Assembly (NCBI RefSeq): GCF_000426525.1
Contig: NZ_KE384533.1
Coordinates: 62,001-126,000 of the forward strand
From: Nocardioides alkalitolerans DSM 16699
GTDB lineage: Bacteria > Actinomycetota > Actinomycetes > Propionibacteriales > Nocardioidaceae
Direction: 5' to 3'
Length of the DNA: 64,000 nucleotides
Of this stretch, positions 47,867 to 60,385 are shown piece after piece. The translations under genes and the position numbers were made by a program. The notes beneath the pieces are model-generated. The model was given only the letters and a program-made list of their open reading frames with translations, did no database searches and was not told the DNA's origin. The stretch's first letter is position 1. Each line of letters opens with the position of its first letter.

Positions 47867-48682
47867 TCACGTCCCGACAGGCACCGCCCGCGGCCGGAGC
47901 CGGGAGGTCAGGAGGTGGGCGCGCCTCTCGGCGAAGACGGCATGCATCTCCGGGTGGGGCGAGATCCAGAACGCGCCGTCCTCCAGACCCGCGAACAGCG
48001 ACTCGGCCGCGGTCTGCGGCGTGACGCCGTGGAGGTTGACGTAGTCGCGCAGCGACGCGCGGTACTCGGACGCCGCCCCCTCGCCGGCCGTGGCGTCGTC
48101 GAAGATCGTCGTCGCCACCGGCCCGGGCAGCAGGACGTGGACCGTGACGTCCGCTCCCACGTCGTCGAGGTCGAGCTGCAGGCTCTCGCTCAGGGCCAGC
48201 ACGGCGTGCTTGCTGGCGTTGTACGCCGACTGCCGCGCCGGACCCGAGGCGAGGGCCGCCAGCGAGGCGACGTTCACGATCGCAGCGGGGGCCCCGGCCT
48301 GGCGCAGCATCAGCGGCACCGCCGCCCTGACCCCGTGCACGACGCCGAGGACGTTGACGTCCAGCATCCGCTCCCACCGCTCCGGCGACGTCTCCCAGAG
48401 GTAGTCCGTCGCCTCGATCGCGGCGTTGTTGACGAGGAGGTCAAGCCGTCCGTGCCGCTCCCGGGCGACATCGACCACCCCGGCCACGGCCGCTCCGTCG
48501 GAGACGTCCGCCACCACCGTCGCCACGTCGTGCCCCTCGGCGGCGAGCTCGCCGCCGATCTCCCGGAGACCGGCCGCGTCCACGTCGGACAGCACGACGG
48601 CGTACCCGCGACGCGTGGCCTCCCGGGCCACCGCCCGACCGATGCCGTTCGCGGCCCCCGTGACCACCGCACTGCGGGTCAA
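47867..48682 (-). CDS. SDR-family oxidoreductase in the sugar-type ABC operon
   Basis: A 271-residue short-chain dehydrogenase. VVTGAANGIGRAVAREATRRG binds NAD(P), NNAAIEATDY follows strand 4, and NVASLAALAS with SAYNASKHA supplies the catalytic Ser, Tyr and Lys. The C-terminal part (LLPGPVATTIFDDA, EYRASLRDYV) forms the substrate lid. I propose TTG 48682, which overlaps the ATPase stop codon (TTGA); later in-frame GTG codons would cut the Rossmann strand. As the last gene after an importer it probably oxidises or reduces the imported compound or an early product. Confidence 0.87.
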   Translation of the reverse strand: MTRSAVVTGAANGIGRAVAREATRRGYAVVLSDVDAAGLREIGGELAAEGHDVATVVADVSDGAAVAGVVDVARERHGRLDLLVNNAAIEATDYLWETSPERWERMLDVNVLGVVHGVRAAVPLMLRQAGAPAAIVNVASLAALASGPARQSAYNASKHAVLALSESLQLDLDDVGADVTVHVLLPGPVATTIFDDATAGEGAASEYRASLRDYVNLHGVTPQTAAESLFAGLEDGAFWISPHPEMHAVFAERRAHLLTSRLRPRAVPVGT

Positions 48683-50277
48683 CGGCCCGCTCCGACCGAC
48701 CCGGCGCCGACCGAGTCCGTAGGCGCCTCCGACGTGCCGTCGGCGACCGTGCCCGCCGTACCCATCGTCAGCTCGGTCAGGTCGTCCGCCGTGAGGCCCG
48801 CCGTGGCGAACACACCGATGCACCGTCCCGCCACCATCACGGCGACCCGGTCGCAGAGGGCGAGGAGCTCCTCCGACTCCGTCGCGAGCACCAGGACGCC
48901 CGCGCCGTCCACGGCCGCGCGCCGCACGATGTCGTGGATCGTCCGCTTCGCCCCGACGTCGACCCCCTGGGTCGGCTCGTCGAGCACCAGCGCCGCCGGA
49001 CCGAGACGGAGGGCGCGCGCCAGCATGACCTTCTGCTGGTTGCCACCGCTCAGGGTCGCGAGCCGTGCCTCGGGATCGCACGGCTTCACCTCGAGATCCG
49101 TCAGCCACCGCAGCGTCTCCTGCCGCTCGCGCTCCCGCAGCAGGCCCCGGCGGCCGTAGACGTCCCGCAGCCGGGAGATGGTGAGGTTCTCCCGCAGCGT
49201 CATGTCGACGAAGGCGGCGTTGCTGAGCCGGTCGGCCGGCACGTAGGCCATCCCCGCTGCGATCGAGGCCACCGGGCTCCCGGCCGTGACCGCGGTCGAC
49301 CCGACCTCCACGAGGCCCGCCCGGGGAAGCGACCCGAACGCCAGCCTGCCGAGGGACTCGCGTCCGGAGCCGGTCACCCCGGCCACACCGACGATCTCGC
49401 CGCGCGCCACCTCGAGGTCGAACGGTTCGATCCCCTCTCCGACGAGACCGCGCAGACGCAGTGCGACGTCGTGCTCCTCCGACCGGGCGGCGGTCGCGTG
49501 GCGCGCACTCGGGCCCTCCAGGTCGCGACCGATGGTCAGGCGCACCAGGCCGGGCTCGGTGAGGTCCGGTACGTCGCGCGTCGCGACGTGGGCGCCGTCC
49601 TTGAGCACGGTGACGCGGTCGCACAGCTCGAAGATCTCCTGGAAGCGGTGCGAGACGTACACGATCGCGACCCCCGCCGCGTTCACCCGGCGGACGACCT
49701 CGAACAGGCGGTCCGCCTCGGCCGCCGGCAGCGACGCCGTCGGCTCGTCGAGCACGAGCACCCGCGCGCCCTGCGTGAAGCCCTCGACCGCTCGCGCGAT
49801 AGCGATGCCCGTGCGCTCGGACGCCCGCAGCTCGCCGACGGGGCGGGTGAGGTCGAACCGGTAGCCCAGCTGCCCGAGGAGCTCCACGGCTGCCTCGCGC
49901 TCCGCCCGCCAGCTGATGGTGCCGAGCCGGGAGCGGCGGTAGCCCCGACCGAGAGCCAGGTTGTCGAGAGCACCGAGCGACGGCACCAGGCCGAGGTCCT
50001 GGTGGACGAACCGCAGGCCCGCGTCGGCCGCGCCGGCGGCGTCGCCGAGGGCGAACTCCTCGCCGGCGAGGACGGCGGTGGCGCCGGGATCGGGGCGGTG
50101 GTAGCCGGCGAGGACCTTGATCAGGGTGGACTTCCCCGAGCCGTTCTGGCCGACCAGTCCGAGGATCTCGCCGGCTCGCAGGTTGAGGTCGACGTCGGTG
50201 AGGGCCCGCGTGCCGGCGAAGGACTTGGAGAGGCCCGCGATCCGGAGGAGGGGAGCCTCCTCGGTGTGCGCCGCCAT
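48679..50277 (-). CDS. Sugar-type ABC transporter ATPase (RbsA/MglA-like)
   Basis: A 532-residue ATPase with two nucleotide-binding domains, the family norm. The first has Walker A GQNGSGKST (about 38) and Walker B VLVLDEPTASL, but its signature region reads LRASERTGIAIARAV rather than LSGG, a common degeneracy in RbsA proteins. The second has a weak Walker A (GVTGSGRES) and an intact LSGGNQQKVMLARAL with LVLDEPTQGVD. ATG 50277 overlaps the permease stop (ATGA). The C-terminal tail is Gly/Ala/Ser-rich. Confidence 0.93.
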   Translation of the reverse strand: MAAHTEEAPLLRIAGLSKSFAGTRALTDVDLNLRAGEILGLVGQNGSGKSTLIKVLAGYHRPDPGATAVLAGEEFALGDAAGAADAGLRFVHQDLGLVPSLGALDNLALGRGYRRSRLGTISWRAEREAAVELLGQLGYRFDLTRPVGELRASERTGIAIARAVEGFTQGARVLVLDEPTASLPAAEADRLFEVVRRVNAAGVAIVYVSHRFQEIFELCDRVTVLKDGAHVATRDVPDLTEPGLVRLTIGRDLEGPSARHATAARSEEHDVALRLRGLVGEGIEPFDLEVARGEIVGVAGVTGSGRESLGRLAFGSLPRAGLVEVGSTAVTAGSPVASIAAGMAYVPADRLSNAAFVDMTLRENLTISRLRDVYGRRGLLRERERQETLRWLTDLEVKPCDPEARLATLSGGNQQKVMLARALRLGPAALVLDEPTQGVDVGAKRTIHDIVRRAAVDGAGVLVLATESEELLALCDRVAVMVAGRCIGVFATAGLTADDLTELTMGTAGTVADGTSEAPTDSVGAGSVGAGR

Positions 50278-51290
50278 CAGACGAGCGCCTTCTGGCGACC
50301 CGACCGCACGGCGAGGGCGACCGCGATGATGAGGGCCGCCCCGTTGAAGAGGTCGTCGACCCAGAAGGGCGCCCCGATGAGCTGGACGCCCTTGACGCCC
50401 GTCGCGAGCACGTACACGGCGACGAGTGTTCCGAGCACGTTGACGTTGCCCTGCCGGAACTGCGTCGCGCCCAGGAAGGCGGCGGCGAAGGCGGGCAGCA
50501 GGTACGGCGTGCCCGCGTCGAGGGAGGCCGAGCCGATCCGCATGACGAAGACGATGCCGGCGGCGGACGCGATGAGGCCCGACACCACGAGAGCGATGGT
50601 CGTCAGCCGGTTGACCCTCACCCCGGCGAGCCGCGCGGCCTCCGTGTTCGAGCCGATCGCGTAGAGGTAGCGCCCGGTCTGGCGGAGCTCGAGCACGTAC
50701 CACATCACCACCGCGATCAGCACCATGAACACCACCGACATCGGGATCCCGAGGACCTCGTGGCGACCGAGGTCGGTGAAGCTCTGCGGGATCCCCGCCA
50801 CGATCTGCTGGCCCCCGGAGATCCACTGGATGGCGGCGACCAGGATCGAGCCGGTGCCGAGGGTCGCGATGAACGAGTTGACCCGCAGGCCCACCACGAT
50901 GAACGCGTTGACGAGCCCGATCACGACGCCCGACAGGAGCGTCAGCCCGATGGCCAGGGGCACGCCCAGCTCCAGCTTCGCCATGAAGGTGGCGACGAGC
51001 ACGATCCCGAGACCCATCGACCCGGCGATGGAGAGGTCGAACTGCGCCGCCGCGATGGGCATGAGGAGGGCGAGGGCCATGATCGCCGTGATGGCCTGTC
51101 CGGCGAGCACCGTTCGGAACGTGTCCGTGGTCAGGAACGTCTCGGGGGTCAGCAGGCCGAACACGGCGATGAGGACCGCCCAGATGAAGAGCAGGCTGAC
51201 GTTGCTCAGGGTGAAGAACCGGGCGGTGCGCGGGATGTCCTGCTCAGAAGGTGGTGCGGTCTGCTCGACCGGGGTGTCGACTGCGGTCAT
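50277..51290 (-). CDS. Sugar-type ABC transporter permease (RbsC-like)
   Basis: A 337-residue membrane subunit with about ten hydrophobic segments. Family landmarks are AQFDLSIAGSMGLGIVL, VNAFIVVGLRVNSFIATLGT, YAIGSNTEAARLAGVRV (the cytoplasmic coupling loop) and FLGATQFRQGNVNVLGT. This class imports ribose, galactose, myo-inositol, autoinducer-2 and also non-sugar compounds. The gene begins 73 bases after the binding-protein gene, with a strong hairpin between them. Confidence 0.93.
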   Translation of the reverse strand: MTAVDTPVEQTAPPSEQDIPRTARFFTLSNVSLLFIWAVLIAVFGLLTPETFLTTDTFRTVLAGQAITAIMALALLMPIAAAQFDLSIAGSMGLGIVLVATFMAKLELGVPLAIGLTLLSGVVIGLVNAFIVVGLRVNSFIATLGTGSILVAAIQWISGGQQIVAGIPQSFTDLGRHEVLGIPMSVVFMVLIAVVMWYVLELRQTGRYLYAIGSNTEAARLAGVRVNRLTTIALVVSGLIASAAGIVFVMRIGSASLDAGTPYLLPAFAAAFLGATQFRQGNVNVLGTLVAVYVLATGVKGVQLIGAPFWVDDLFNGAALIIAVALAVRSGRQKALV

Positions 51291-51319
51291 GTTCGGCTCC
51301 TGGGGCGCGTTGTCGGGTG

Positions 51320-51350
51320 CCGGTCCCGCTCCAGGTGGGAGCGGGACCGG
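51320..51350 (-). terminator. Intercistronic hairpin after the binding-protein gene
   Basis: CCGGTCCCGCTCC (51320-51332) pairs perfectly with GGAGCGGGACCGG (51338-51350) around a 5-base loop. It lies between the binding-protein stop and the permease start. Partial termination or protection of the upstream mRNA would give excess binding protein. Confidence 0.75.
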
Positions 51351-51363
51351 TGAGGGGCGTTCG

Positions 51364-52497
51364 TCAGCTCGTGGCCTGCCAGAGCTCGAGGAACTGCTCC
51401 TGCATGTCGGTCGGCAGGTTGAAGAGCAGGTCCTCCTCGGACTCGCCCTCCACGGTGTCGGCGGTGACGAGCCGCAGGGGCATCTGCCACCGCTCGATCT
51501 GGGGGTCGCCGTTGAAGTGCCGCACGAAGGCGTCGACGGCCTGCCAGTTGAAGTACGTGACCGAGAACTGCACGTAGCCGTGCTCGGTGCCGTTGCGGAC
51601 GTTCTCGAGCGAGCCCGCGCTGGCGTTGGCCCCGACGATGCGCACCTGGTCGGCGGCACCGGCCTCGCGCAGAGCGGCCGGCACGCCGCTCGTCATCACG
51701 GAGTCCGCGAACGCGACGTAGTTGACGTCGGGCGCGCGCTGCACCTCGCTCACGACGATGCCGGGGGTGTTCGTCCCGATGTCGGAGACCTGGGTCGTCA
51801 CGACCTCGGCGCTGCACGACGAGCAGTTCTCCTCGATCGTCTCGGCCGCGGTGGCGATGATCTGCTGCCCGATGGGGAAGTTGGCCATCTCGAAGAGGAG
51901 GACGTTCGCGGTGCCCTCGCTGTCGGCGATGATGTAGTTGCCGAGCACCTCGCCGACCGTCTCGAACTCGGGGATGCCGTCCTGCACGACGACGATCGGA
52001 CCTTCGGCCACGTCGGGGCTGGCACCGAGGACGATCGGGATCCCTGCGGCCTCGGCCTCCTCGTACGCCGCCGAGAAGGTGGCGCTGGGGACTCCGTTGA
52101 CGGCGATGCCGTCGACCCCCTGGTCGATGGCGAACCGCACCTTCTCGAGCACGTCCTCGGGCGTCCCGTCGAACGGGATCGCGATGCCCTCCCACCCGAT
52201 GGCCTCGGCCGCCTCGATCCCCGCCTCCTGGGACTTGATGCACACCTCGACGTTGCAGCTGAGGAAGGCGATGGTCTTGCTCCCGGACGGCGCCTGGCTC
52301 ACGGGCGTGTCGGCACCGATCGAGGTGGGCGCCTCGCGGTAGGGCTCGACGAACGCCTCGGCAGCGTCGAGCTGCTCGTCGGAGGCCGGCGGGCCGGCGG
52401 ATTCGGCGCTCGAGCCGCAGGCGGAGAGCGCGGCGGCCGCCACGGTGAGCACCGAGCCGATCGCGGCGGCTCGTCGGAGGTGGGGCTGGGTCTTCAC
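51364..52497 (-). CDS. Sugar-type ABC substrate-binding lipoprotein
   Basis: A 377-residue periplasmic-binding-protein-like (class I) lipoprotein. The basic start and hydrophobic helix end in the lipobox LSAC with Cys27. KTIAFLSCNVEVCIKSQEAG opens the first lobe; FAIDQGVDGIAVNGV and SAAYEEAEAAGIPIVLGAS are typical of the RbsB/AraF fold, and PDVNYVAFADSVMTSGVP leads into the second lobe. Two Cys pairs (CNVEVC and CSSC) are unusual for the family and may form disulfides. AAGGAG precedes GTG 52497. Ligand unknown; the flanking monooxygenase operon argues for a non-sugar. Confidence 0.9.
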   Translation of the reverse strand: MKTQPHLRRAAAIGSVLTVAAAALSACGSSAESAGPPASDEQLDAAEAFVEPYREAPTSIGADTPVSQAPSGSKTIAFLSCNVEVCIKSQEAGIEAAEAIGWEGIAIPFDGTPEDVLEKVRFAIDQGVDGIAVNGVPSATFSAAYEEAEAAGIPIVLGASPDVAEGPIVVVQDGIPEFETVGEVLGNYIIADSEGTANVLLFEMANFPIGQQIIATAAETIEENCSSCSAEVVTTQVSDIGTNTPGIVVSEVQRAPDVNYVAFADSVMTSGVPAALREAGAADQVRIVGANASAGSLENVRNGTEHGYVQFSVTYFNWQAVDAFVRHFNGDPQIERWQMPLRLVTADTVEGESEEDLLFNLPTDMQEQFLELWQATS

Positions 52498-52575
52498 GGC
52501 GGTTGCTCCTTCATCGGGTTCCGGCCGGTCACCCAGGGGATCCGAGCCCGGGCCGTGCCGTGTGATCTGCGTCTC

Positions 52576-52594
52576 AGCGGATTGAAGCGATTGA
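52576..52594. repeat. Tandem direct repeat near the ABC operon promoter
   Basis: AGCGGATTGA (52576-52585) is followed at once by AGCGATTGA (52586-52594). Direct repeats at one-turn spacing are typical of AraC-family binding sites, and an AraC gene lies next door. Confidence 0.45.
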
Positions 52595-52731
52595 TGATCA
52601 CCGACGTCCACGCGCTCGGGGAGGTCTGCGCTTTTCGGCGCCTGCAGGGGCGGCCGGGGGCCGACGGGCGAGCGGCAGCGCGCAATTCGGATAGTCGCTC
52701 CCGGCCACCGACCGACCCGTCCTCGACGTGA

Positions 52732-52765
52732 GCAGCCCCCGTCCTGGGCGGAGGACGGGGGCTGC
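52732..52765 (-). terminator. Strong terminator after the AraC gene
   Basis: GCAGCCCCCGTCC (52732-52744) pairs over 13 bases with GGACGGGGGCTGC (52753-52765) around an 8-base loop, 31 bases after the AraC stop codon. Confidence 0.85.
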
Positions 52766-52796
52766 GGACGGGAGCGCCGAGCGGCGCGGGAGGGAC

Positions 52797-53780
52797 TCAG
52801 AGACCGGCGACGTGCCCCCGGCGACGGGTGACCGAGGGCAGCTCACCGAACTCGCGACGGTAGCTCTCCGCGAACCGACCCATGTGGAGGAAGCCCCAGC
52901 GCTGGGCCACCTGGTTGACCGTCACGAGCGCCGCGGCGTCGAGGAGGTCGTCGCGCACCCGACGCAGACGCACCGACCGCACGTAGCTCATCGGCGTGGT
53001 GTCGTGCTCCCGGCGGAAGCCGTCCTGGAGCGAGCGGACGCTCACGTGCACCCTGCTGGCCAGCGAGAGCGCCGACCAGGGCGCCGCCGGATCCTCCTCG
53101 ACGAGCTCGATGGCGCGGGCCACCGCGTTCGTCGTCGTGCTGCGGAAGCGTTGCTCGAGCACGTCGCTGAGCGAGTTGCGGTGGGCCAGCAGCAGGCCCT
53201 CGACCACGAGCCGTTCGAAGTGGTGGCGGGTCATGGCCTGCTGGATCAGTCCGGAGTCCGCCTCCAGCTCGCCCGCGAGCAGGTTCACCAGCCTCCACCA
53301 GCTGCGCCCGCTGGGAGTCGTGAGGTCCATCCTGGGCTCGAAGACGACGGGAGCGGGCGGGGTGCGGCCGAGGAGGGCCTCGGCCTCCGATCGCACCAGG
53401 TCGGGTGGGATCATGAAGCACATGAGCGTGGTCCCGGCGGCCCAGTAGGTGTCGGGGGTCTGACCCGGGCCCCACACGGAGGCCCGGCCCGGGGTGATGA
53501 GCTGGGGCTCGTCCGCCGCTCCCCCGCAGAGGACCTTGCCCGTGAGCGGCAGGCACACGTGGTACTGCCCCGACTCGTCGGTCCCGTGCAGGCGGCTCGG
53601 CTTCCGCACGTGCAGGCGGCCGGCGACCACGTGGCTCAGGGTGGCCGCGTCGAGCGTGAACTCGAACGACTGGCGTGGGCCGACCTCGATGGAGCTCGGC
53701 TCGTACGTGCTCGACACCGTCGACTCCGCGATCTCGCGGTCGTCGGTCCTCAGGACCCGCTTCACCACGGCACTACCCAC
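52797..53780 (-). CDS. AraC-family activator of the monooxygenase operon
   Basis: A 327-residue regulator. The N-terminal two-thirds is an AraC-binding-like domain (SFEFTLDAATLSHVVAGRLHV, then GGAADEPQLITPGRASVWGPG). The C-terminal domain holds two HTH units: ALSLASRVHVSVRSLQDGFRREHDTTPMSY and VNQVAQRWGFLHMGRFAESYRREFGELP. This architecture is common in activators of aromatic and cyclic-ketone degradation. GTG 53780. It is the last gene of the catabolic operon, so it is probably autoregulated, and it may also act on the adjacent ABC operon. Confidence 0.9.
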   Translation of the reverse strand: MGSAVVKRVLRTDDREIAESTVSSTYEPSSIEVGPRQSFEFTLDAATLSHVVAGRLHVRKPSRLHGTDESGQYHVCLPLTGKVLCGGAADEPQLITPGRASVWGPGQTPDTYWAAGTTLMCFMIPPDLVRSEAEALLGRTPPAPVVFEPRMDLTTPSGRSWWRLVNLLAGELEADSGLIQQAMTRHHFERLVVEGLLLAHRNSLSDVLEQRFRSTTTNAVARAIELVEEDPAAPWSALSLASRVHVSVRSLQDGFRREHDTTPMSYVRSVRLRRVRDDLLDAAALVTVNQVAQRWGFLHMGRFAESYRREFGELPSVTRRRGHVAGL

Positions 53781-53805
53781 TCCGCACCGACCACCTCTGC
53801 TCCGG

Positions 53806-54099
53806 TCAGTCCGTCCTCGAGCCGGGCTGCGCTGCCATCTCGTCGGGCGCGATCGTCACGTGCGCCCGGAGGCGTCCGTGGGCATCGACCCATCCCTTGC
53901 TCCTGGCATAGTCGACCATCGACCCGAGTTCGTCGAGCCATTCCGCGTCCACGCTGTCGCCGGCGAGCTCCATGAGCACGTCGCGGTGGATCCAGGCGTG
54001 CGGGGGCACCCTCAGCTCGATGCTCAACGAGTCGAAGACGGACGACTCCTCCAGGACGGTGCGTGGTGGGACCACGGTGTGGTCCGTGACGATGCGCAT
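53806..54099 (-). CDS. Small conserved-looking protein in the monooxygenase operon
   Basis: A 97-residue cytoplasmic protein of unknown family. It has an N-terminal strand (MRIVTDHTVV), an amphipathic segment (SIELRVPPHAWIHRDVLMEL), an acidic helix (DAEWLDELGSMVDYARSKGW) and a final strand (GRLRAHVTIAP). AAGGAGAGC precedes the ATG. It lies between the flavin reductase and AraC genes with short gaps, so it is part of the operon. It might be an accessory or chaperone-like component of one of the monooxygenases; nothing in the sequence proves it. Confidence 0.7.
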   Translation of the reverse strand: MRIVTDHTVVPPRTVLEESSVFDSLSIELRVPPHAWIHRDVLMELAGDSVDAEWLDELGSMVDYARSKGWVDAHGRLRAHVTIAPDEMAAQPGSRTD

Positions 54100-54135
54100 G
54101 GGGTGCTCTCCTTCGGGGTGGGGAGGGGTCGACGG

Positions 54136-54705
54136 TCACCACAGGTCGTGGTGGTCGGTCCCGAAGTCCGACAGCTCGACGCGGGCGGCCGAGTCGAGCG
54201 ACGGCAGGAACCGGCCGAACGCCCCGGAGTGGTAGGTCAGCGGCGCGGTCGTCTGGCCCGACCGGATGGCGACGACCCGGGCGATGAACACGAGGTGGGT
54301 GCCGGCGAGCACCTCCTGGCTCACCTCGCACTCGAGCGACACGTGGGTCCCCCGCAGCACGGGGTGCTGGGCGGACGAGCGGTCGAAGGGCAGGCCCTCG
54401 AACTTGCCGGCCCCCTTGCCCGCGAAGCGCATCGCGAGCGCACCCTGCCGTCGGGAGAGGACGTTCACGACGAACCCGCGGTTCTCCTGCACCGCCCGGC
54501 CGGTGTCCGAGGTGACGTTGAGGCACACGAGGACGCTCGGCGGGTTGTTCGACACCGAGGAGAACGCGCTCACGGTCGCTCCGAGGTCCTGCCCCTCGTG
54601 CCGGGTCGTGATGACGGTGACGCCGGACGAGAACCGACCCATCGCCGACCGGAACTCCGCGTCGGTGACGGGGTGGACGACGGCCTCCTGCTCCACGACG
54701 CTCAT
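54136..54705 (-). CDS. Flavin reductase (HpaC-like)
   Basis: A 189-residue NAD(P)H:flavin reductase with the flavin-reductase-like fold: FRSAMGRFSSGVTVITT at residues 18-34, GATVSAFSSVSNNPPSVLVCLN with the flavin-contacting SAFSSVS, FVVNVLSRRQGALAMRFAG, and HLVFIARVVAI near the end. It would supply reduced FMN to the luciferase-like monooxygenase of the operon, which needs free reduced flavin; the Baeyer-Villiger-type enzyme reduces its own. ATG 54705 overlaps the stop of that gene (ATGA). Confidence 0.9.
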   Translation of the reverse strand: MSVVEQEAVVHPVTDAEFRSAMGRFSSGVTVITTRHEGQDLGATVSAFSSVSNNPPSVLVCLNVTSDTGRAVQENRGFVVNVLSRRQGALAMRFAGKGAGKFEGLPFDRSSAQHPVLRGTHVSLECEVSQEVLAGTHLVFIARVVAIRSGQTTAPLTYHSGAFGRFLPSLDSAARVELSDFGTDHHDLW

Positions 54706-56387
54706 CGCCCCGCCACCGGTACGTCGACCGCTCCGGCCGGTTCCGTCGCCCGGGCCGGTGCAGGTTCGAGCGAGAAGCCCTCGTAGCCGCGGCGTGCGAC
54801 CTCCGCGCAGATGTCCCGGTAGGACTTCTGGCCGGCAGCCCACAGCGGGATCCGGCGCCACTTCCCGGCCACGTTCGCGCCGCTGTAGTAGGAGTTCGTC
54901 GCCAGCGGGAAGACCGTCCCCTGCACGATCTCCTCGACGCGGTCGGTCCACTCCTTCTGGGCGACGTCCGTCGCCTCGATCACGCCGAGCCCGTGCTCGG
55001 CCAGGTAGCCCAGGCACTCGTCGATCCACTCCACGTGCTGCTCGATCGCGACCGTCATGACTGCCAGCACCGCCGGGCTGCCCGGCCCGGTGACGGTGAA
55101 CATGTTGGGAAAGCCGTGGACCCCGAGACCGAGGTACGTCGTGGGGCCGTCGCTGTCGCGCCACACCTGGTCGAGCCGTCGACCGCCACGGCCCCGGATG
55201 TCGATCCGGCCGAGGGCGCCGGAGAGCGCGTCGTAGCCGACGGCGTACACGATCGTGTCGACCTCGTACGTCGTACCGTCCGCCAGCTCGACGCCCTGAG
55301 GCACGATCCGACGGATCGGGTTCTCGCGCACGCTGACGAGCCGGACGTGCTCCTGGTTGTAGGTCGCGAAGTAGTTCGTGTCGCAGCAGAGGCGCTTCGC
55401 GGCGATCGGGTGGTCCGTCGGCACCAGCAGCTCGGCCGTCGCGGGGTCGTCGACGGTCTCGCGGATCCGGTCGCGCACGAAGTCGGCCAGGAGCGTGTTC
55501 GCGGCGACGTCCGTCATCGTGTCGACGAAGGCGACGTTGAAGATCGGTGCACCCCCGAACTCCCAGCGCCGGCGCATCTCCGCCTGGGCCTCGTCGGCGT
55601 CGTACGAGTGGGCGCTGCGGGGGTTCACGTCGACGGTGACGCCGCTGGGCGAGTCCCGCTGCGCCTGGCGGTGCTGCGGGTACACCGACTTGCGGGCGGC
55701 CACCTCGTCCGCGGTGAGCGGACGGTTGCGCGCCGGGATGCTGAAGTTGGGCGTGCGCTGGAAGACCGTGACCTCGGACGCCGCCTGCGCGATCACGGGG
55801 ATCGACTGGACGCCGCTGGACCCCGTGCCCACGACCGCCACCCGCTTGCCGTCGAACGACACGTCGTGCCGGGGCCACCGGGAGGTCTGGTACCACTCGC
55901 CGCCGAAGGTCTCGAAGCCCTCGAACGGAGGGTCGAGCGGCGCGGACAGGCTGCCGGTGGCGAAGACGACGAACTGGGCGTCCAGCGTGCCCCCGTGGCT
56001 CAACCCGACCGACCAGCGGCCTCGCTCCTCGTCGTACGCGGCGCTCTCCACCCGCGTGTCGAGGGTGATGTCCCGGCGCAGGTCGAAGCGGTCCGCGACG
56101 TGGTGGATGTAGCGCAGGATCTCGGGCTGGGCCGGGTAGAGCTCGCTCCACGTCCAGTCCTGGTCGAGCTCGGGCGAGAAGGAGTAGGAGTAGTCCATGC
56201 TCTCGACGTCGCAGCGGGCCCCGGGGTAGGCGTTCCAGTACCAGGTGCCGCCGATGTCGGGCCCGGCCTCGATGACGCGCACGGTCAGGCCGCGTGCGCG
56301 GAAGCGGTGCAGCGCGTAGAGACCGGCGAGGCCCGCCCCGACGACGACGACGTCGGGGCGTCCGGTGGTGGGGGTGTCGTGGTTCAT
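54702..56387 (-). CDS. Baeyer-Villiger-type flavin monooxygenase
   Basis: A 561-residue type I Baeyer-Villiger monooxygenase homologue, inserting oxygen into a ketone to give an ester or lactone with NADPH and FAD. VVVGAGLAGLYALHRFRARG at the N-terminus binds FAD, GGTWYWNAYPGARCDVES is the conserved second block, and VAVVGTGSSGVQSIPVIA binds NADPH. The fingerprint region reads FGGEWYQTSRWP, where the usual consensus FxGxxxHxxxW has Gln instead of His. C-terminal landmarks (YAVGYDALSG, NMFTVTGPGSP) are present. Neighbouring esterase and dehydrogenase genes fit a ketone to ester to alcohol plus acid route. Confidence 0.9.
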   Translation of the reverse strand: MNHDTPTTGRPDVVVVGAGLAGLYALHRFRARGLTVRVIEAGPDIGGTWYWNAYPGARCDVESMDYSYSFSPELDQDWTWSELYPAQPEILRYIHHVADRFDLRRDITLDTRVESAAYDEERGRWSVGLSHGGTLDAQFVVFATGSLSAPLDPPFEGFETFGGEWYQTSRWPRHDVSFDGKRVAVVGTGSSGVQSIPVIAQAASEVTVFQRTPNFSIPARNRPLTADEVAARKSVYPQHRQAQRDSPSGVTVDVNPRSAHSYDADEAQAEMRRRWEFGGAPIFNVAFVDTMTDVAANTLLADFVRDRIRETVDDPATAELLVPTDHPIAAKRLCCDTNYFATYNQEHVRLVSVRENPIRRIVPQGVELADGTTYEVDTIVYAVGYDALSGALGRIDIRGRGGRRLDQVWRDSDGPTTYLGLGVHGFPNMFTVTGPGSPAVLAVMTVAIEQHVEWIDECLGYLAEHGLGVIEATDVAQKEWTDRVEEIVQGTVFPLATNSYYSGANVAGKWRRIPLWAAGQKSYRDICAEVARRGYEGFSLEPAPARATEPAGAVDVPVAGR

Positions 56388-57409
56388 CTCTGGTGATCTC
56401 CTCGAGCCGGGTCGTGCCGCAGCAGGACCTTGATGTGGTGGGTCGCGGGGTCGCGCAGGTCCGCGAACGCGTCGGCGGCGTCGGCGACGTCCGCCACGCG
56501 GGTGATGAGGTCGTCGGTGGGAAGCGCGCCCGACGCGAGCAGCTCGACGGCCCGGGCGAAGTCGGCGCGGGAGTAGCCGGCCGAGCCGACGATCTCGACC
56601 TCCCGCAGGATGGCGTCCGAGGCGTCGAACGACACGGGACCACCGAGACCCACGAGCACGACCCGGCCGCCGCGACGCACGGAGGCGACCTGGGCGGCCA
56701 CCGCGACCGGGGCGCCGGTGCAGTCGACGAAGGTGGCCGCGTCCAGCTCGGCGAGCTGCGCGTCGGTGGTGATCTCGGCGGTCCCGACCCCCAGGGACGA
56801 CGCCAGGTCGCGGCGAGCGGGGTTGCGCTCCACCGTCGTCACGTCGGTGAAGCCCTCGGCCCGCAGGATGAGGGAGACCAGGACCCCGATCGGGCCGGCG
56901 CCGACGACGACGACGGGGTCGCCGGTCGCGCTCGTGACCTTGGTCGCCGCACGCCGCGCGACGGCGACGGGCTCGGCCAGGGCCCCCTGCTCGAGGGTGG
57001 TGCCGGGCGGGAGGCGCACCAGCGCCGCCTCGTCCGCCACCACCGTGGAGGCCAGCCCGCCGACGCGCTGCACGCCCAGCACGCTGCCGAAGTGGCCACC
57101 GTCGACGCAGAGGTTCTCGCTACCGACGGCGCAGTAGCGGCAGCGCCCGCAGCTCTCGTACGGCACCACGGCGACGTGGTCACCGACCGCGACGCTCCTC
57201 ACGCCGTCGGCGACGGCGGCGACCACCCCGGCGAGCTCGTGCCCGAGCACCGACCGCACCGGGAACTCCTCGTCGCCCAGCATGTGGAGGTCGCTGCCGC
57301 AGATCCCGCAGAAGGCGACGTCGACCGCCACCTGCGTCCCCGCGACGGCGGGCGCCGGGCGGCGAGCGAGTGCCAGTCCGCGTCCCTCGGTGATCTCCAT
57401 GACCCTCAT
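56384..57409 (-). CDS. Zinc-dependent alcohol dehydrogenase (MDR)
   Basis: A 341-residue medium-chain dehydrogenase. CGICGSDLHML holds the catalytic zinc Cys, GHELAGVV the His-Glu pair, and CGRCRYCAVGSENLC the four structural-zinc cysteines. The coenzyme site is VVVGAGPIGVLVSLIL. It would oxidise an alcohol to the ketone used by the Baeyer-Villiger-type enzyme, or the released alcohol. I chose ATG 57409; ATG 57400 is an alternative, and neither has a strong ribosome-binding site. Its stop overlaps the monooxygenase start (ATGA), and the LLM gene ends 14 bases upstream. Confidence 0.9.
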   Translation of the reverse strand: MRVMEITEGRGLALARRPAPAVAGTQVAVDVAFCGICGSDLHMLGDEEFPVRSVLGHELAGVVAAVADGVRSVAVGDHVAVVPYESCGRCRYCAVGSENLCVDGGHFGSVLGVQRVGGLASTVVADEAALVRLPPGTTLEQGALAEPVAVARRAATKVTSATGDPVVVVGAGPIGVLVSLILRAEGFTDVTTVERNPARRDLASSLGVGTAEITTDAQLAELDAATFVDCTGAPVAVAAQVASVRRGGRVVLVGLGGPVSFDASDAILREVEIVGSAGYSRADFARAVELLASGALPTDDLITRVADVADAADAFADLRDPATHHIKVLLRHDPARGDHQR

Positions 57410-57423
57410 CCGCGACGGCCCGC

Positions 57424-58581
57424 TCAGTCGGCGTCGGCGACGACGGGGCGCTCGGTCCACCACGCCGGCGGCCAGATCTCGCTGCCCTGCATGACCCCGT
57501 CGACGAGACGGCGGCGGCGCACCTGCTCCTCGGAGCGTCGGAACGCCGGCGCGACGTACCGCATGAAGAGCTCGTTCGACCGACGCCACTTGTCGGACGT
57601 CACCCAGTTGCGGTCGTTGAGGACCAGGGTGCCGAAGGGCCCGACGGTCTCCCGCAGCTGCTGGATCTGCTCGATGCAGTCCTCGGGCGAGCCCATGATC
57701 ATCGGCAGGTTCTCGACCAGGTACTCCAGCGTGAGGACGTCGTCGGACTCGCTGGGGTCCGACTTCAGGAGCGCCCCGGCGCCGAGCCCGATGATGTAGT
57801 CGTAGGACTGCCGGGCGGCCTCGCGCAGCTCCTCGATCGCCGACGCCTTGCTGTCGGAGACGTAGACCTCGCGCAGGATCCGCCAGCCCTGACGGGCCAC
57901 GAGCGGGTCGCGGCCCGCCTCGCGAGCGCCGCGGTCGATGGCCTCGCCCTGCGTCCGCAACGTCAGCGGGCCGTCCGCGGGACCGTCGGGACGCACGTAG
58001 TACATGCTCATCGCGCCGTACCCGTTGCGGCCGCACAGCTCGTACTTGCCCGGGGAGCGCAGCCCGGCCACCGCGATCGGCAGCGGCTCCTGCAGGGGGC
58101 GGACCTGGAGCTCCCGGTCCTTGAACTGCCAGAACTCCCCGTCGTGCGAGAACGGCTCGGTGGCGTTGAACAGCTGGTCGACGACCGGCAGCGCCTCCTC
58201 GAAGCGCTCCGCCGCCGTGTCGGAGGTGCCGAACAGGGCCTGGTCGAACGGCAGGCCGCCTCCACCGAAGCCCGCGATCAGGCGGCCGTGAGTGAGGTGG
58301 TCGAGGAAGGCCAGCCGCTCCGCGACCAGGAACGGGTCGTGGTAGGGCAGGTTGATCGTCCCGGTGCCGAGCTTGATGCGGCTCGTCAGGGCCGAGGCCT
58401 TCGCGATGTAGTAGTCGGGGACGGGCACGTTCTCGTAGCCGCCCGCGTGGTGCTCGCCGATCCAGAACTCGTCGAACCCGAGCTTCTCGGCGACCTGGAT
58501 CTTCTCGAGGTCGAGGTCGTAGGAGAGGGTCCAGTTCTCCCACGGCACGTGCTCGGGCATGGAGAAGATTCCGAACTTCAT
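57424..58581 (-). CDS. Luciferase-like (LLM) flavin-dependent monooxygenase
   Basis: A 385-residue TIM-barrel enzyme of the bacterial-luciferase family, using reduced FMN from a separate reductase. MKFGIFSMPEH at the start, AEKLGFDEFWIGEHH near 30-45, LTSRIKLGTGTINLPYHDPF and RLIAGFGGGGLPFDQALFG are the family blocks. The C-terminal part (GSPEDCIEQIQQLRETVGPFG) is standard for group-A LLM proteins. The flavin reductase three genes downstream is its natural partner. Substrate unknown; related enzymes oxidise alkanes, ketones, terpenes or amines. Confidence 0.92.
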   Translation of the reverse strand: MKFGIFSMPEHVPWENWTLSYDLDLEKIQVAEKLGFDEFWIGEHHAGGYENVPVPDYYIAKASALTSRIKLGTGTINLPYHDPFLVAERLAFLDHLTHGRLIAGFGGGGLPFDQALFGTSDTAAERFEEALPVVDQLFNATEPFSHDGEFWQFKDRELQVRPLQEPLPIAVAGLRSPGKYELCGRNGYGAMSMYYVRPDGPADGPLTLRTQGEAIDRGAREAGRDPLVARQGWRILREVYVSDSKASAIEELREAARQSYDYIIGLGAGALLKSDPSESDDVLTLEYLVENLPMIMGSPEDCIEQIQQLRETVGPFGTLVLNDRNWVTSDKWRRSNELFMRYVAPAFRRSEEQVRRRRLVDGVMQGSEIWPPAWWTERPVVADAD

Positions 58582-58634
58582 GGTGGCTCCTTGTCGATGG
58601 GGCTGTCGATGGGTGCAGCGGTGGGGCGCGCCGG

Positions 58635-59180
58635 TCAGACCGACGGGCGCGCGGTGGTGTCGAGGTAGAGGTCCGACTGGAGGAACTCGATGCGAATGCC
58701 GTCCGGGTCGGTCATGTAGATGACCTTCCCGCCGTCCAGCGGCCCCCCGTTGATGGGGACGACCCGCCGGCTGACCGGGTCGAGCCCCAGGCCGACGAGG
58801 CGGTGGTAGAGCTCGTCGATGTCGTCGACGTACCAGGCGATGTGGCAGGTGCCCGGGTTCGGGTGGTACGGGTCCACCGGCGTGCGCTCGACGTTCCGGT
58901 ACTCGATGACCTCCATGTAGGCGTTGGTGCCGGGCAGGCGGAGCAGCGCCATGTTGAGGCTCGCCTCCGGCAGGTCCACCGCCTCCCGCGTGTGGGCGTC
59001 CTCGACGAGCCACTCGGAGACGACCTCGAGGCCGATCTGGTCCCGGTAGAAGGGCAGGGACACGGAGAGGTCGCGCACCTGGATGCCGACGTGGCTGAAC
59101 TCCGTCACGCGGTTGGGCGTGACCTGACCAGCGCGCGCCGGTCGGCTCTCGGGCTGCGTCGTGCTGTCGATGGTCGTCAT
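58635..59180 (-). CDS. VOC-superfamily protein (extradiol dioxygenase/glyoxalase-like)
   Basis: A 181-residue single-pair vicinal-oxygen-chelate protein. FSHVGIQVRDLSVSLPFYRDQIGLEV near 29-54 supplies the first His, GTCHIAWYVDDIDELYHRL the second, and GKVIYMTDPDGIRIEFLQ the metal-binding Glu. All three positions are kept, so it probably binds a divalent metal, as in glyoxalase, epimerase or extradiol dioxygenases. Its length suits a small single-module enzyme rather than a full two-domain dioxygenase. It overlaps the esterase stop by four bases and precedes the LLM gene by 53 bases. Confidence 0.87.
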   Translation of the reverse strand: MTTIDSTTQPESRPARAGQVTPNRVTEFSHVGIQVRDLSVSLPFYRDQIGLEVVSEWLVEDAHTREAVDLPEASLNMALLRLPGTNAYMEVIEYRNVERTPVDPYHPNPGTCHIAWYVDDIDELYHRLVGLGLDPVSRRVVPINGGPLDGGKVIYMTDPDGIRIEFLQSDLYLDTTARPSV

Positions 59181-60136
59181 CGGGTCCTCGTCTCGTCGGT
59201 GGTGGTCTGCTGTCGTCTGCTGGATCGGGCGGCGCGGTCGCGGATGGCCGCCGCGACGGCGCCGACGGCCTCGTCGGCCAGGGGTGTGATCGCGTGGAGG
59301 GTGGCGAAGCCGTGGATGGCCCCCGGGTACTCGAGGACCTCGCACGCCACTCCGGCCTCCTCGAGCCGACGGCCGTAGGCGATCCCCTCGTCATGCAGCG
59401 GGTCGAACCCCGCCACGACGACCAGGGCGGGGGCGACGCCGCCGAGGTCGGTGGTGCGGAGCACGGAGGCCCGGGGGTCGAACCGGTCGGCCTCGCCGAC
59501 GTACTGGGTCCAGAACCAGTCCATGTCGGCGGTCGTCAGCAGGTAGCCGGCTCCGTTGCGGCGGTACGAGTCGCGCTCGAGGTCCGCGTCCAGGACCGGG
59601 TAGAGGAGCGCCTGGAGCGCGACCTCGACGCCCGCGTCGCGGGCCGCGACGGCCGCTGAAGCGGCGAGGTTCCCTCCCGAGCTGTCGCCCGCGACGACGA
59701 GCGGGAGGTCGTAGCGCTCCGCCGCCCAGGCGACCGCGTCGGCCGCGTCCTCGACGGGCCCGGGGAACGGGACCTCCGGCGCGTGCCGGTAGTTCACGTT
59801 GACGACGATCGCCCCGGCCTCCACCGCGAGCTGGCGGCAGAGCTGGTCGTGGCCCTCGAGGTCGCCGAGCACCCACCCGCCGCCGTGGAGGTAGACGACC
59901 ACGGCCGTCGCTGCGCCGTGCGGCGCGTACTCCCGCGCCGGCACGGACCCGGCTCGGGTCGGGACGGCCAGGTCGACCACCGTCGCGACCTCGATCGTCC
60001 GGGTGCGCATCGTCGCGAGGAAGGCAGCGTTGCCGGCGCGCGCCTCCTCGGGCGTCCCGGCGGTGATCGGCGGGGCGTCGGCCTCCGCCGCAGCGGCGAG
60101 GAACGCCGCCAGCGCCGCGTCGACCTGCTCACCCAT
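59177..60136 (-). CDS. HSL-family esterase/lipase, first gene of the monooxygenase operon
   Basis: A 319-residue cytoplasmic alpha/beta hydrolase. HGGGW (in VVVYLHGGGWVLGDLEGHD, about 85-103) forms the oxyanion hole, GDSSGGN (about 153) the nucleophile elbow, and FDPLHDEG with GAIHGF the Asp and His. It would split the ester or lactone made by the Baeyer-Villiger-type enzyme, the textbook pairing for ketone breakdown. It is related to the esterase at 16.9-17.9 kb. A 14-bp palindrome and a CRP-like site lie about 30-50 bases upstream of ATG 60136. Confidence 0.92.
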   Translation of the reverse strand: MGEQVDAALAAFLAAAAEADAPPITAGTPEEARAGNAAFLATMRTRTIEVATVVDLAVPTRAGSVPAREYAPHGAATAVVVYLHGGGWVLGDLEGHDQLCRQLAVEAGAIVVNVNYRHAPEVPFPGPVEDAADAVAWAAERYDLPLVVAGDSSGGNLAASAAVAARDAGVEVALQALLYPVLDADLERDSYRRNGAGYLLTTADMDWFWTQYVGEADRFDPRASVLRTTDLGGVAPALVVVAGFDPLHDEGIAYGRRLEEAGVACEVLEYPGAIHGFATLHAITPLADEAVGAVAAAIRDRAARSSRRQQTTTDETRTR

Positions 60137-60165: not shown

Positions 60166-60186
60166 CGGTCACGTGACCGCCGTCAC
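60166..60186. promoter_or_regulatory. 14-bp palindrome overlapping CRP/GlxR-like site, copy 6
   Basis: CGGTCACGTGACCG (60166-60179) is a perfect palindrome. Its right half also forms GTGAC-CGCC-GTCAC (60173-60186). Two alternative symmetric sites therefore share one GTGAC, 30-50 bases before the operon start. The rest of the divergent gap (60187-60385) has a short TCGTACGA palindrome but no clear promoter. Confidence 0.55.
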
Positions 60187-60385
60187 ACGAGGATGAGGAC
60201 CGGGGGTCGCCCGACTCAACGAAACGGGGCGGACCGGCTCGCACTCTGCGCAAAGCGGATAGAGCGGGGAGGCCGGCCGGCGACGCCCGGTCACGCCGCG
60301 GGAATATCTCGCCCCTCCCGATTGTCGTACGATCATCATGCAATCACGGCGGTCCCTCCGGACCGCCCCACCCGAGGAGAAACCC

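What the first reader, a model, noticed from the sequence alone, without database searches (positions are those of the whole stretch)
47867..60136. Monooxygenase catabolic island with its own ABC importer and AraC activator
An esterase, VOC protein, LLM monooxygenase, zinc ADH, Baeyer-Villiger-type monooxygenase, flavin reductase, unknown 97-residue protein and AraC activator run in one direction, mostly with 4-base overlaps. An RbsABC-type importer plus SDR follows on the same strand. Two different flavin monooxygenases with one free-flavin reductase suggest two oxygen insertions in one pathway. A sugar-type importer beside such enzymes suggests a polar or glycosylated ketone or cyclic compound as substrate. 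I do not recognise this gene set as a described pathway.
Basis: partly seen in the sequence, partly recalled or inferred. Interest (0 to 1): 0.65.

Follow-up and report, generated by a model that had tools for sequence, protein, structure and literature searches.

The report
Likely ketone-degrading cluster with importer
A bacterium carries a rare, self-contained set of genes that most likely imports a small ring or ketone compound and breaks it open with two different oxygen-adding enzymes, and the importer looks more like one for such compounds than for sugars.

Summary
In detail: twelve minus-strand genes (47867-60136) encode esterase, VOC protein, LLM, zinc-ADH, type I BVMO, flavin reductase, a 97-residue protein, AraC regulator, RbsABC-type importer and SDR. 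The linkage is real: a same-genus genome (G305) has all twelve in the same order at another chromosomal place, and a Solirubrobacterales contig has esterase-BVMO-VOC-LLM-ADH. Both operons, in both genomes, share a 14-bp box, found nowhere else as an exact match, and a CRP/GlxR-like site (both patterns written post hoc). The step 'sugar-type importer, so polar or glycosylated substrate' is not supported: relatives of this importer mostly sit beside LLM, acyl-CoA or oxygenase genes, and only the host's two most distant copies look sugar-like. I read an inducible module: oxygenation, dehydrogenation, Baeyer-Villiger oxidation, ester or lactone hydrolysis, re-oxidation. It resembles cyclohexanol (chn) logic plus an LLM, with partial precedent in the progesterone pdc cluster. 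Two oddities: the BVMO fingerprint His is Gln in all three cluster BVMOs, and the 97-residue protein belongs to a domain family without a Pfam match that is fused to flavin reductases elsewhere. The substrate is unknown.

The parts
59177..60136 (-). EST: HSL-type alpha/beta hydrolase (esterase/lactonase), 319 aa
   Evidence: Abhydrolase_3 1.7e-70; HGGG and GDSSGG visible in the sequence; 70% in G305, 55% in L018
58635..59180 (-). VOC: single-domain glyoxalase-fold protein with conserved H30/E90/H113/E165, 181 aa
   Evidence: Glyoxalase PF00903 3.4e-11; the four residues conserved in G305, both domains of L018 and the own-genome relative
57424..58581 (-). LLM: luciferase-like flavin monooxygenase, 385 aa
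   Evidence: Bac_luciferase 6.7e-46; PDB relatives include 3,6-diketocamphane monooxygenase 4uwm, 7.3e-18; 93% in G305, 64% in L018
56384..57400 (-). ADH: zinc-type medium-chain dehydrogenase, 338 aa
   Evidence: ADH_N, ADH_zinc_N; 68% in G305, 49% in L018
54702..56387 (-). BVMO: type I Baeyer-Villiger-type monooxygenase, nearest steroid/phenylacetone monooxygenase; fingerprint His replaced by Gln167
   Evidence: PDB 4ap1 7.8e-169, 1w4x 1.4e-162; Gln in 3 of 3 cluster BVMOs
54136..54705 (-). Flavin reductase, 189 aa
   Evidence: Flavin_Reduct 4.2e-38; 56% in G305
53806..54099 (-). p97: small protein of a domain family that elsewhere is fused N-terminally to flavin reductases
   Evidence: 59% in G305; fusions in L095, L096, L097; alignment A4
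52797..53768 (-). AraC/XylS-type regulator, 323 aa
   Evidence: AraC_binding_2 2.3e-29 and HTH_18 6.3e-21; 81% in G305
51364..52497 (-). SBP: substrate-binding lipoprotein (Peripla_BP_4), 377 aa
   Evidence: PF13407 1.9e-20; lipobox-like LSAC in sequence; 85% in G305
50277..51290 (-). ABC permease (BPD_transp_2), 337 aa
   Evidence: 8.5e-32; 84% in G305
48679..50277 (-). ABC ATPase with two nucleotide-binding domains (RbsA type), 532 aa
   Evidence: ABC_tran, two stretches; 79% in G305
47867..48682 (-). SDR: short-chain dehydrogenase, last gene; likely TTG start at 48682 overlapping the ATPase stop
   Evidence: adh_short 4.2e-46 (scanned from 48667); start inferred from the sequence and from G305
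60248..60261 (-). box TATCCGCTTTGCGC upstream of EST (putative AraC site)
   Evidence: only 2 exact matches of TATCCGNWTTNCGC in each of G000 and G305; pattern defined post hoc
52680..52693 (-). box TATCCGAATTGCGC upstream of SBP (putative AraC site)
   Evidence: pattern defined post hoc
60173..60187 (-). CRP/GlxR-like TGTGACGGCGGTCAC upstream of EST
   Evidence: present in G305; consensus recalled
52562..52576 (-). CRP/GlxR-like TGAGACGCAGATCAC upstream of SBP
   Evidence: present in G305; consensus recalled

Best explanation
A laterally distributed, inducible catabolic module of two operons. Shown: the gene content, the conserved linkage of all twelve genes in a second genome, and similar cis elements in front of both operons. 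Inferred: the lipoprotein SBP and RbsABC-type importer take up a small, probably non-sugar compound (cyclic or branched alcohol or ketone, such as a terpenoid or alicyclic). LLM plus flavin reductase (with p97 as accessory) adds the first oxygen. SDR or zinc-ADH makes the ketone. The VOC protein epimerises or isomerises it next to the carbonyl. The type I BVMO inserts oxygen to give an ester or lactone, the HSL-type esterase hydrolyses it, and the other dehydrogenase oxidises the released alcohol towards an acid that leaves for acyl-CoA degradation encoded elsewhere. The AraC protein switches both operons on with the substrate, under CRP/GlxR-type catabolite control.
For: All 12 genes in the same order in G305 with different flanks. 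EST-BVMO-VOC-LLM-ADH on a contig of another class. Shared 14-bp box only in the two promoters in each genome, reversed control 0, and CRP-like boxes in all four promoters. BVMO closest to steroid and phenylacetone monooxygenase. VOC H-E-H-E set conserved. Relatives of the importer beside LLM, acyl-CoA dehydrogenase and Rieske oxygenase genes, in RHA1 beside LLM and flavin reductase relatives, in Paraburkholderia beside an AraC regulator, an FMO-like protein and SDRs; only the host's two most distant copies look sugar-like.
Against: No substrate evidence. The BVMO lacks the fingerprint His. Importer and enzymes are seen together in only two complete clusters of one genus; the third cluster sits on a contig too short to tell. 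Both cis patterns were written after seeing the sites; the four-way score of the box (11/14) is only slightly above its controls (9, 10 and 9), and 5 of 100 shuffles reach the observed number of CRP-like sites. No acid-activating or beta-oxidation gene lies inside the unit. The importer neighbourhood argument has no formal background rate and its grouping by permease identity was made after seeing the loci. Order and reaction of each step are inferred.
Confidence: 0.6

Rival explanations
1. pdc-like redundancy: LLM and BVMO both perform the same Baeyer-Villiger step on an acetyl side chain of a steroid-like ketone, and the esterase removes acetate.
For: Steroid monooxygenase is the closest solved BVMO; LLM and BVMO of the Caenibius pdc cluster are redundant on progesterone (PMC12239570).
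Against: No HsaB equivalog over the 230-bit cut-off in G000 or G305 (0 of 2), so no sign at this marker of the 9,10-seco pathway that would follow. This is weak: the best matches reach 186.7 and 180.1 bits, and none of the 14 control genomes is over the cut-off, so the test has no positive control. pdc as described is four genes without importer, VOC or esterase. The LLM was not compared with the pdc LLM itself.
Confidence: 0.2
2. The importer takes a sugar or glycoside, and the enzymes work on a glycosylated or polar ketone.
For: RbsABC architecture; among the best NCBIfam and PDB relatives are galactofuranose and ribose transporters.
Against: SBP is only weakly similar to sugar SBPs (1.5e-5) and scores 73.9 bits on Peripla_BP_4 against 229.7 and 171.3 for the host's two sugar-like importers. 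Relatives of the SBP lie mostly among acyl-CoA, LLM and oxygenase genes. No glycoside hydrolase or sugar kinase among the twelve genes.
Confidence: 0.12
3. The BVMO with Gln in place of the fingerprint His is not a Baeyer-Villiger enzyme but an N- or S-oxygenase or an uncoupled oxidase, and the pathway differs.
For: Gln167 in window, G305 and L018 against His in steroid and phenylacetone monooxygenase and in 4 of 6 other relatives examined.
Against: Both Rossmann motifs and the KR of the active-site Arg region (role recalled) align with the two proven Baeyer-Villiger enzymes over nearly full length; 2 of the 6 other relatives also lack the His; an esterase gene accompanies the enzyme in all three clusters.
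Confidence: 0.12

Closest known systems
chn/cpn clusters (cyclohexanol/cyclopentanol degradation; recalled, the paper search returned none)
   Same: SDR alcohol dehydrogenase, type I BVMO, alpha/beta-hydrolase, zinc-ADH and an AraC-type regulator
   Different: Here additionally LLM, flavin reductase, VOC, p97 and an ABC importer; no aldehyde dehydrogenase in the unit; BVMO is nearest the steroid/phenylacetone enzymes, cyclohexanone monooxygenases score lower
pdc cluster of Caenibius tardaugens (PMC12239570; abstract, passages, Discussion read)
   Same: One LLM and one type I BVMO in one cluster
   Different: pdc is four genes: the two enzymes and two regulators (TetR-like and LuxR-type); no flavin reductase in it, no esterase, VOC or importer
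R. opacus DSM 44186 plasmid locus L112
   Same: alpha/beta-hydrolase, ADH, BVMO-type oxidoreductase (51%) and SDR in a row
   Different: MFS transporter nearby instead of ABC importer; no LLM, flavin reductase or VOC annotated in the stretch
tetramethylpyrazine tpd-type locus (L102; PMC6099782, passages read)
   Same: LLM with flavin reductase, small accessory protein, and a p97 homologue in the locus
   Different: TpdB is a different small protein; LuxR-type regulator; amidase; no BVMO annotated in the stretch

Membership tests
Type I Baeyer-Villiger monooxygenase | two GxGxxG Rossmann motifs | tested here: met
   GAGLAG and GTGSSG in the sequence
Type I Baeyer-Villiger monooxygenase | fingerprint FxGxxxHxxxW(P/D) (motif recalled; it is also a search term found in papers) | tested here: not met
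   His is Gln167: FGGEWYQTSRWP; same substitution in G305 and L018. Hence 'BVMO-like clade member', activity unproven
Type I Baeyer-Villiger monooxygenase | ketone to ester/lactone activity | not testable with these tools
   needs an enzyme assay
Two-component LLM / type II BVMO | luciferase-like oxygenase with a partner flavin reductase | tested here: met
   PF00296 and PF01613 in one operon; partnership itself inferred
Two-component LLM / type II BVMO | Baeyer-Villiger rather than hydroxylating or F420-dependent activity | not testable with these tools
   best NCBIfam match is an F420-type subfamily at 97.4 bits, below its cut-off of 166.9, so the cofactor is not settled
RbsABC sugar importer | SBP + permease + double-NBD ATPase | tested here: met
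RbsABC sugar importer | meets a curated sugar-transporter equivalog | tested here: not met
   best matches: ATPase 375.7 bits vs cut-off 850, permease 141.4 vs 398, SBP 18.2 vs 510
chn-type pathway | SDR + BVMO + hydrolase + ADH + AraC regulator | tested here: met
   by family only
chn-type pathway | cyclohexanone-monooxygenase-type BVMO and semialdehyde dehydrogenase | tested here: not met
   BVMO nearest steroid/phenylacetone monooxygenase; no Aldedh gene among the twelve
pdc progesterone cluster | LLM and BVMO together in a steroid degrader | tested here: inconclusive
   both genes present; HsaB marker below cut-off in G000 and G305, no positive control
VOC isomerase/glyoxalase I type | four metal ligands H-E-H-E (pattern recalled) | tested here: met
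   H30, E90, H113, E165 aligned in five sequences; metal binding itself not shown

The most novel reading that the evidence does not exclude
There is a widespread, undescribed subfamily of RbsABC-type importers specialised for hydrophobic or alicyclic compounds, which travels with flavin monooxygenases and acyl-CoA genes in Actinomycetota and on a betaproteobacterial plasmid. This cluster is a new pathway using it, in which an LLM and a His-to-Gln BVMO act in series and a new small protein domain (p97) couples flavin reductase to LLM.
Probability: 0.35. Interest if true: 0.65.

Novelty: new variant of a known kind. Interest (0 to 1): 0.45.

Why it matters
To my knowledge (recalled, not searched exhaustively) importers for terpenoid, alicyclic or steroid-like compounds in Gram-positive bacteria are poorly known, and records here name this importer type 'sugar ABC transporter'. 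Gene neighbourhood suggests a non-sugar group inside that label and makes it testable with one binding protein. The cluster also offers a BVMO group with an altered fingerprint residue, and a small-protein family linked to two-component flavin monooxygenases.

Tried and rejected
Sugar importer: judged unlikely from neighbourhoods.

Extradiol dioxygenase role for the VOC: considered because L018 has a fused double VOC; set aside because each domain keeps H-E-H-E. Steroid pathway: HsaB marker below cut-off, weak test. Mobile-element proof by an empty site: of 59 genomes (host included) 10 hold one flanking gene and 8 the other at the limits used, none but the host both, so no empty site could be shown; lateral spread is inferred from different flanks and patchy presence (VOC in 2 of 341 family genomes). 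Structure of p97: single-sequence model, mean pLDDT 53.7, not used for any claim. p97 as TpdB: rejected, L102 holds both as separate genes. Phylum search for the LLM: 28 of 396 genomes match at 1e-60 (host included); I opened only the best other one, G931, which lacks the cluster. Plasmid search with the VOC found two 34% relatives, not opened. Plasmid LLM hits H1 and H2 were opened and show other gene sets. Paper searches gave the pdc paper as the one close precedent; PMC6099782 was read in passages; all other listed papers were seen as search listings only.

p97 linkage is not absolute: of 19 loci outside the window, 13 have an LLM gene within about 5 kb, 1 has only a flavin reductase, 5 have neither (two near-identical Pseudonocardia plasmids with partial matches, two sister genomes beside a purL-like ORF, one with a BVMO-like gene about 2 kb away). 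H52 and H55 are near-identical too, so independent cases are fewer. The plasmid search was run at E up to 0.1 and several hits are weak (4e-3 to 8e-2). No background rate was measured, and LLM genes are common in these genera.
Full report
Observation. In transcription order: esterase, VOC, LLM, zinc-ADH, BVMO, flavin reductase, p97, AraC, SBP, permease, ATPase, SDR. Only 4 of 11 junctions are 4-base overlaps, and one gap of 299 bases splits the set into two units. None of the twelve reaches a curated NCBIfam cut-off among the matches shown (up to 25 per protein), so functions are given at family level.

Conserved linkage. In the taxonomic order, LLM relatives at 1e-60 occur in 5 of 391 genomes (host included), and only G305 besides the host is close (93%). 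G305 carries all twelve genes in the same order (56-93% identity by tblastn). Six genes that flank the window's cluster, used as queries, gave no match in about 50 kb around the G305 cluster, whose flanks hold other genes. The VOC gene is found in 2 of 341 family genomes at 1e-20, host and G305. A scan of 84,980 species genomes with two N-terminal LLM patterns gave 12 loci; relatives without those peptides would be missed. One of them, L018 (Solirubrobacterales contig JAAYBF010000216.1, 8.8 kb), has EST (55%), BVMO (61%), a fused double VOC (45% and 49%), LLM (64%) and ADH (49%), preceded by a GTP cyclohydrolase II/DHBP synthase-like ORF and a CoA-transferase-like ORF (the last two named by my reading of the translations). 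The contig ends before an importer could be seen. The other 11 loci have LLMs of 53-55% and no EST, BVMO or VOC match at 1e-5. The phylum search (28 of 396 genomes at 1e-60, host included) showed no further cluster in the one other locus opened.

Regulation. The promoters of EST and SBP share TATCCGNWTTNCGC in both genomes. A whole-genome scan finds the exact pattern twice in G000 (4.85 Mb) and twice in G305, each time in these two promoters; the reversed pattern gives 0. The pattern was written after seeing the sites, so absence elsewhere is expected by chance too. A four-way comparison gives 11 of 14 shared columns against 9, 10 and 9 for reversed, complemented and reverse-complemented controls, which is modest. 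All four promoters also hold TGWGA-N6-TCAC, a CRP/GlxR-like pattern (recalled consensus, written post hoc); the window has 3 such sites where 0.75 are expected, and 5 of 100 shuffles reach 3. I take this as suggestive evidence that importer and enzymes are co-regulated by the encoded AraC protein.

Enzymes. The BVMO's nearest solved structures are steroid monooxygenase (4ap1, 7.8e-169) and phenylacetone monooxygenase (1w4x, 1.4e-162). The fingerprint His aligned in both is Gln167 here, also in G305 and L018. Six other relatives show His in four (L110-L113), Phe in L108 and another residue in L096. The VOC protein keeps H30, E90, H113 and E165, the ligand pattern I recall for glyoxalase I and methylmalonyl-CoA epimerase, so an isomerase or epimerase at the alpha carbon of a ketone is my preferred role. 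The esterase has HSL motifs. With SDR, zinc-ADH and an AraC regulator this is the functional set of cyclic-alcohol ring opening (chn/cpn, recalled), to which an LLM/flavin reductase pair is added.

Importer. NCBIfam scores are far below sugar-transporter cut-offs, and SBP matches sugar-binding proteins in the PDB only at 1.5e-5. In 296 class genomes, 8 including the host have an SBP relative at 1e-40, with 11 places outside the host at 28-33%. Ten of these 11 loci also hold the ATPase and permease; L083 does not. Scanning 56 of 90 neighbour gene calls from 8 of the 11 loci: SDR 11, acyl-CoA dehydrogenase 5, Rieske/ring-hydroxylating 4, aldehyde dehydrogenase 4, LLM 3, AMP-binding 3 (25 of 60 families shown).

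In the host's own genome six further permease relatives exist at 1e-15. Ranked by permease identity: L123 (41%) and L124 (44%) also have a tblastn-detectable SBP relative (27% and 29%); their 21 neighbour genes include 4 LLM, 2 acyl-CoA dehydrogenase, 2 CoA-transferase III, 2 thiolase, 2 enoyl-CoA hydratase and 1 AMP-binding. L125 (40%) has a VOC, aldehyde dehydrogenase, FAA hydrolase, FAD_binding_3 monooxygenase-type, SDR and ADH. L126 (38%) has an acyl-CoA dehydrogenase and an alpha/beta hydrolase but also cobalamin genes. L127 (31%) and L128 (32%) have strong Peripla_BP_4 binding proteins (229.7 and 171.3 bits), with a LacI-type regulator-like protein in L127 and a xylose-isomerase-like protein in L128; the window SBP scores 73.9, those of L125 and L126 48.8 and 90.4. 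The pooled scan of L125-L128 also holds one ROK and one FGGY gene, locus not resolved. So the nearer relatives are mostly not sugar-like and the two farthest are. The grouping was made after seeing the loci.

Of six plasmid records with an SBP relative, five were opened; H44 was not, its record being of nearly the same length and with the same match values as H43. R. jostii RHA1 pRHL1 has LLM and flavin reductase relatives beside the importer. Paraburkholderia has an AraC_binding_2 regulator, an FMO-like protein and SDRs. Herbiconiux has a hydroxyphenylpropionate-type hydroxylase, thiolase and acyl-CoA dehydrogenase as annotated. The other two have ADH and SDR relatives (L132) and SDR, acyl-CoA synthetase and VOC relatives (L134) by tblastn. 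This importer group is therefore more likely for hydrophobic or acyl-CoA-type catabolic substrates than for sugars.

p97. Homologues are found in G305 (59%), three further genomes of the family, 11 plasmid records (E up to 0.1) and 4 of 196 other class genomes at 1e-3. In three Roseobacteraceae plasmids the family forms the N-terminal part of a flavin reductase that follows an LLM gene directly. Seven columns are invariant in 11 sequences and no Pfam model matches below 0.1 apart from the fused flavin reductase domain. Of 19 loci outside the window, 13 have an LLM within about 5 kb; 6 do not. I propose an accessory domain of the LLM/flavin-reductase pair; its action is unknown.

Known precedents. 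The pdc cluster (PMC12239570; abstract, passages and Discussion read) pairs an LLM with a type I BVMO, shown redundant for progesterone to testosterone acetate. The tpd operon (PMC6099782; passages read) starts with a putative flavin monooxygenase gene and serves tetramethylpyrazine degradation. Neither has the gene set found here, and the paper searches named in Tried and rejected returned no description of it; subscription papers are largely not held.

Verdict. A real, rare, probably laterally distributed catabolic module, a new variant of known Baeyer-Villiger pathways. What is new is the combination, the importer group and the small protein; the substrate remains to be found.

Noticed in passing
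window:54702-56387 (-), residue 167; L014, L018: The BVMO fingerprint histidine is glutamine in all three cluster BVMOs; 4 of 6 other relatives examined keep His.
   Followed up: partly
window:53806-54099 (-); L095, L096, L097: The unknown 97-residue protein belongs to a small domain family without a Pfam match, fused to flavin reductases in Sulfitobacter and Pseudosulfitobacter plasmids and near LLM genes in 13 of 19 loci.
   Followed up: partly
L060 (G000:C4:308000-327900): A second cluster in the host genome carries a VOC relative (39%), pyruvate-dehydrogenase E1-like alpha and beta ORFs, a LacI-like ORF, SDR and an RbsC-type permease (most ORF names by eye).
   Followed up: no
L123, L124, L125 (G000:C8, C2, C7): Three further host importers of this type sit among LLM, acyl-CoA, CoA-transferase, thiolase, FAA-hydrolase or FAD-monooxygenase genes; they look like further catabolic clusters worth a look.
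   Followed up: partly
L018:1178-6151: A GTP cyclohydrolase II/DHBP synthase-like ORF (riboflavin synthesis) precedes the esterase, and the VOC is a fused double domain in this Solirubrobacterales cluster.
   Followed up: partly
L135 (Paraburkholderia pSYMBR3459): An AraC regulator, SBP-ATPase-permease importer, FMO-like protein, two SDRs, 3-hydroxyacyl-CoA and aldehyde dehydrogenases and an acetoin-dehydrogenase-like set stand together on a symbiosis plasmid.
   Followed up: partly
window:46458-47778 (-): A molybdopterin-domain oxidoreductase and a cytochrome b561-type membrane protein pair lies just downstream; neither is found near the cluster in G305.
   Followed up: no
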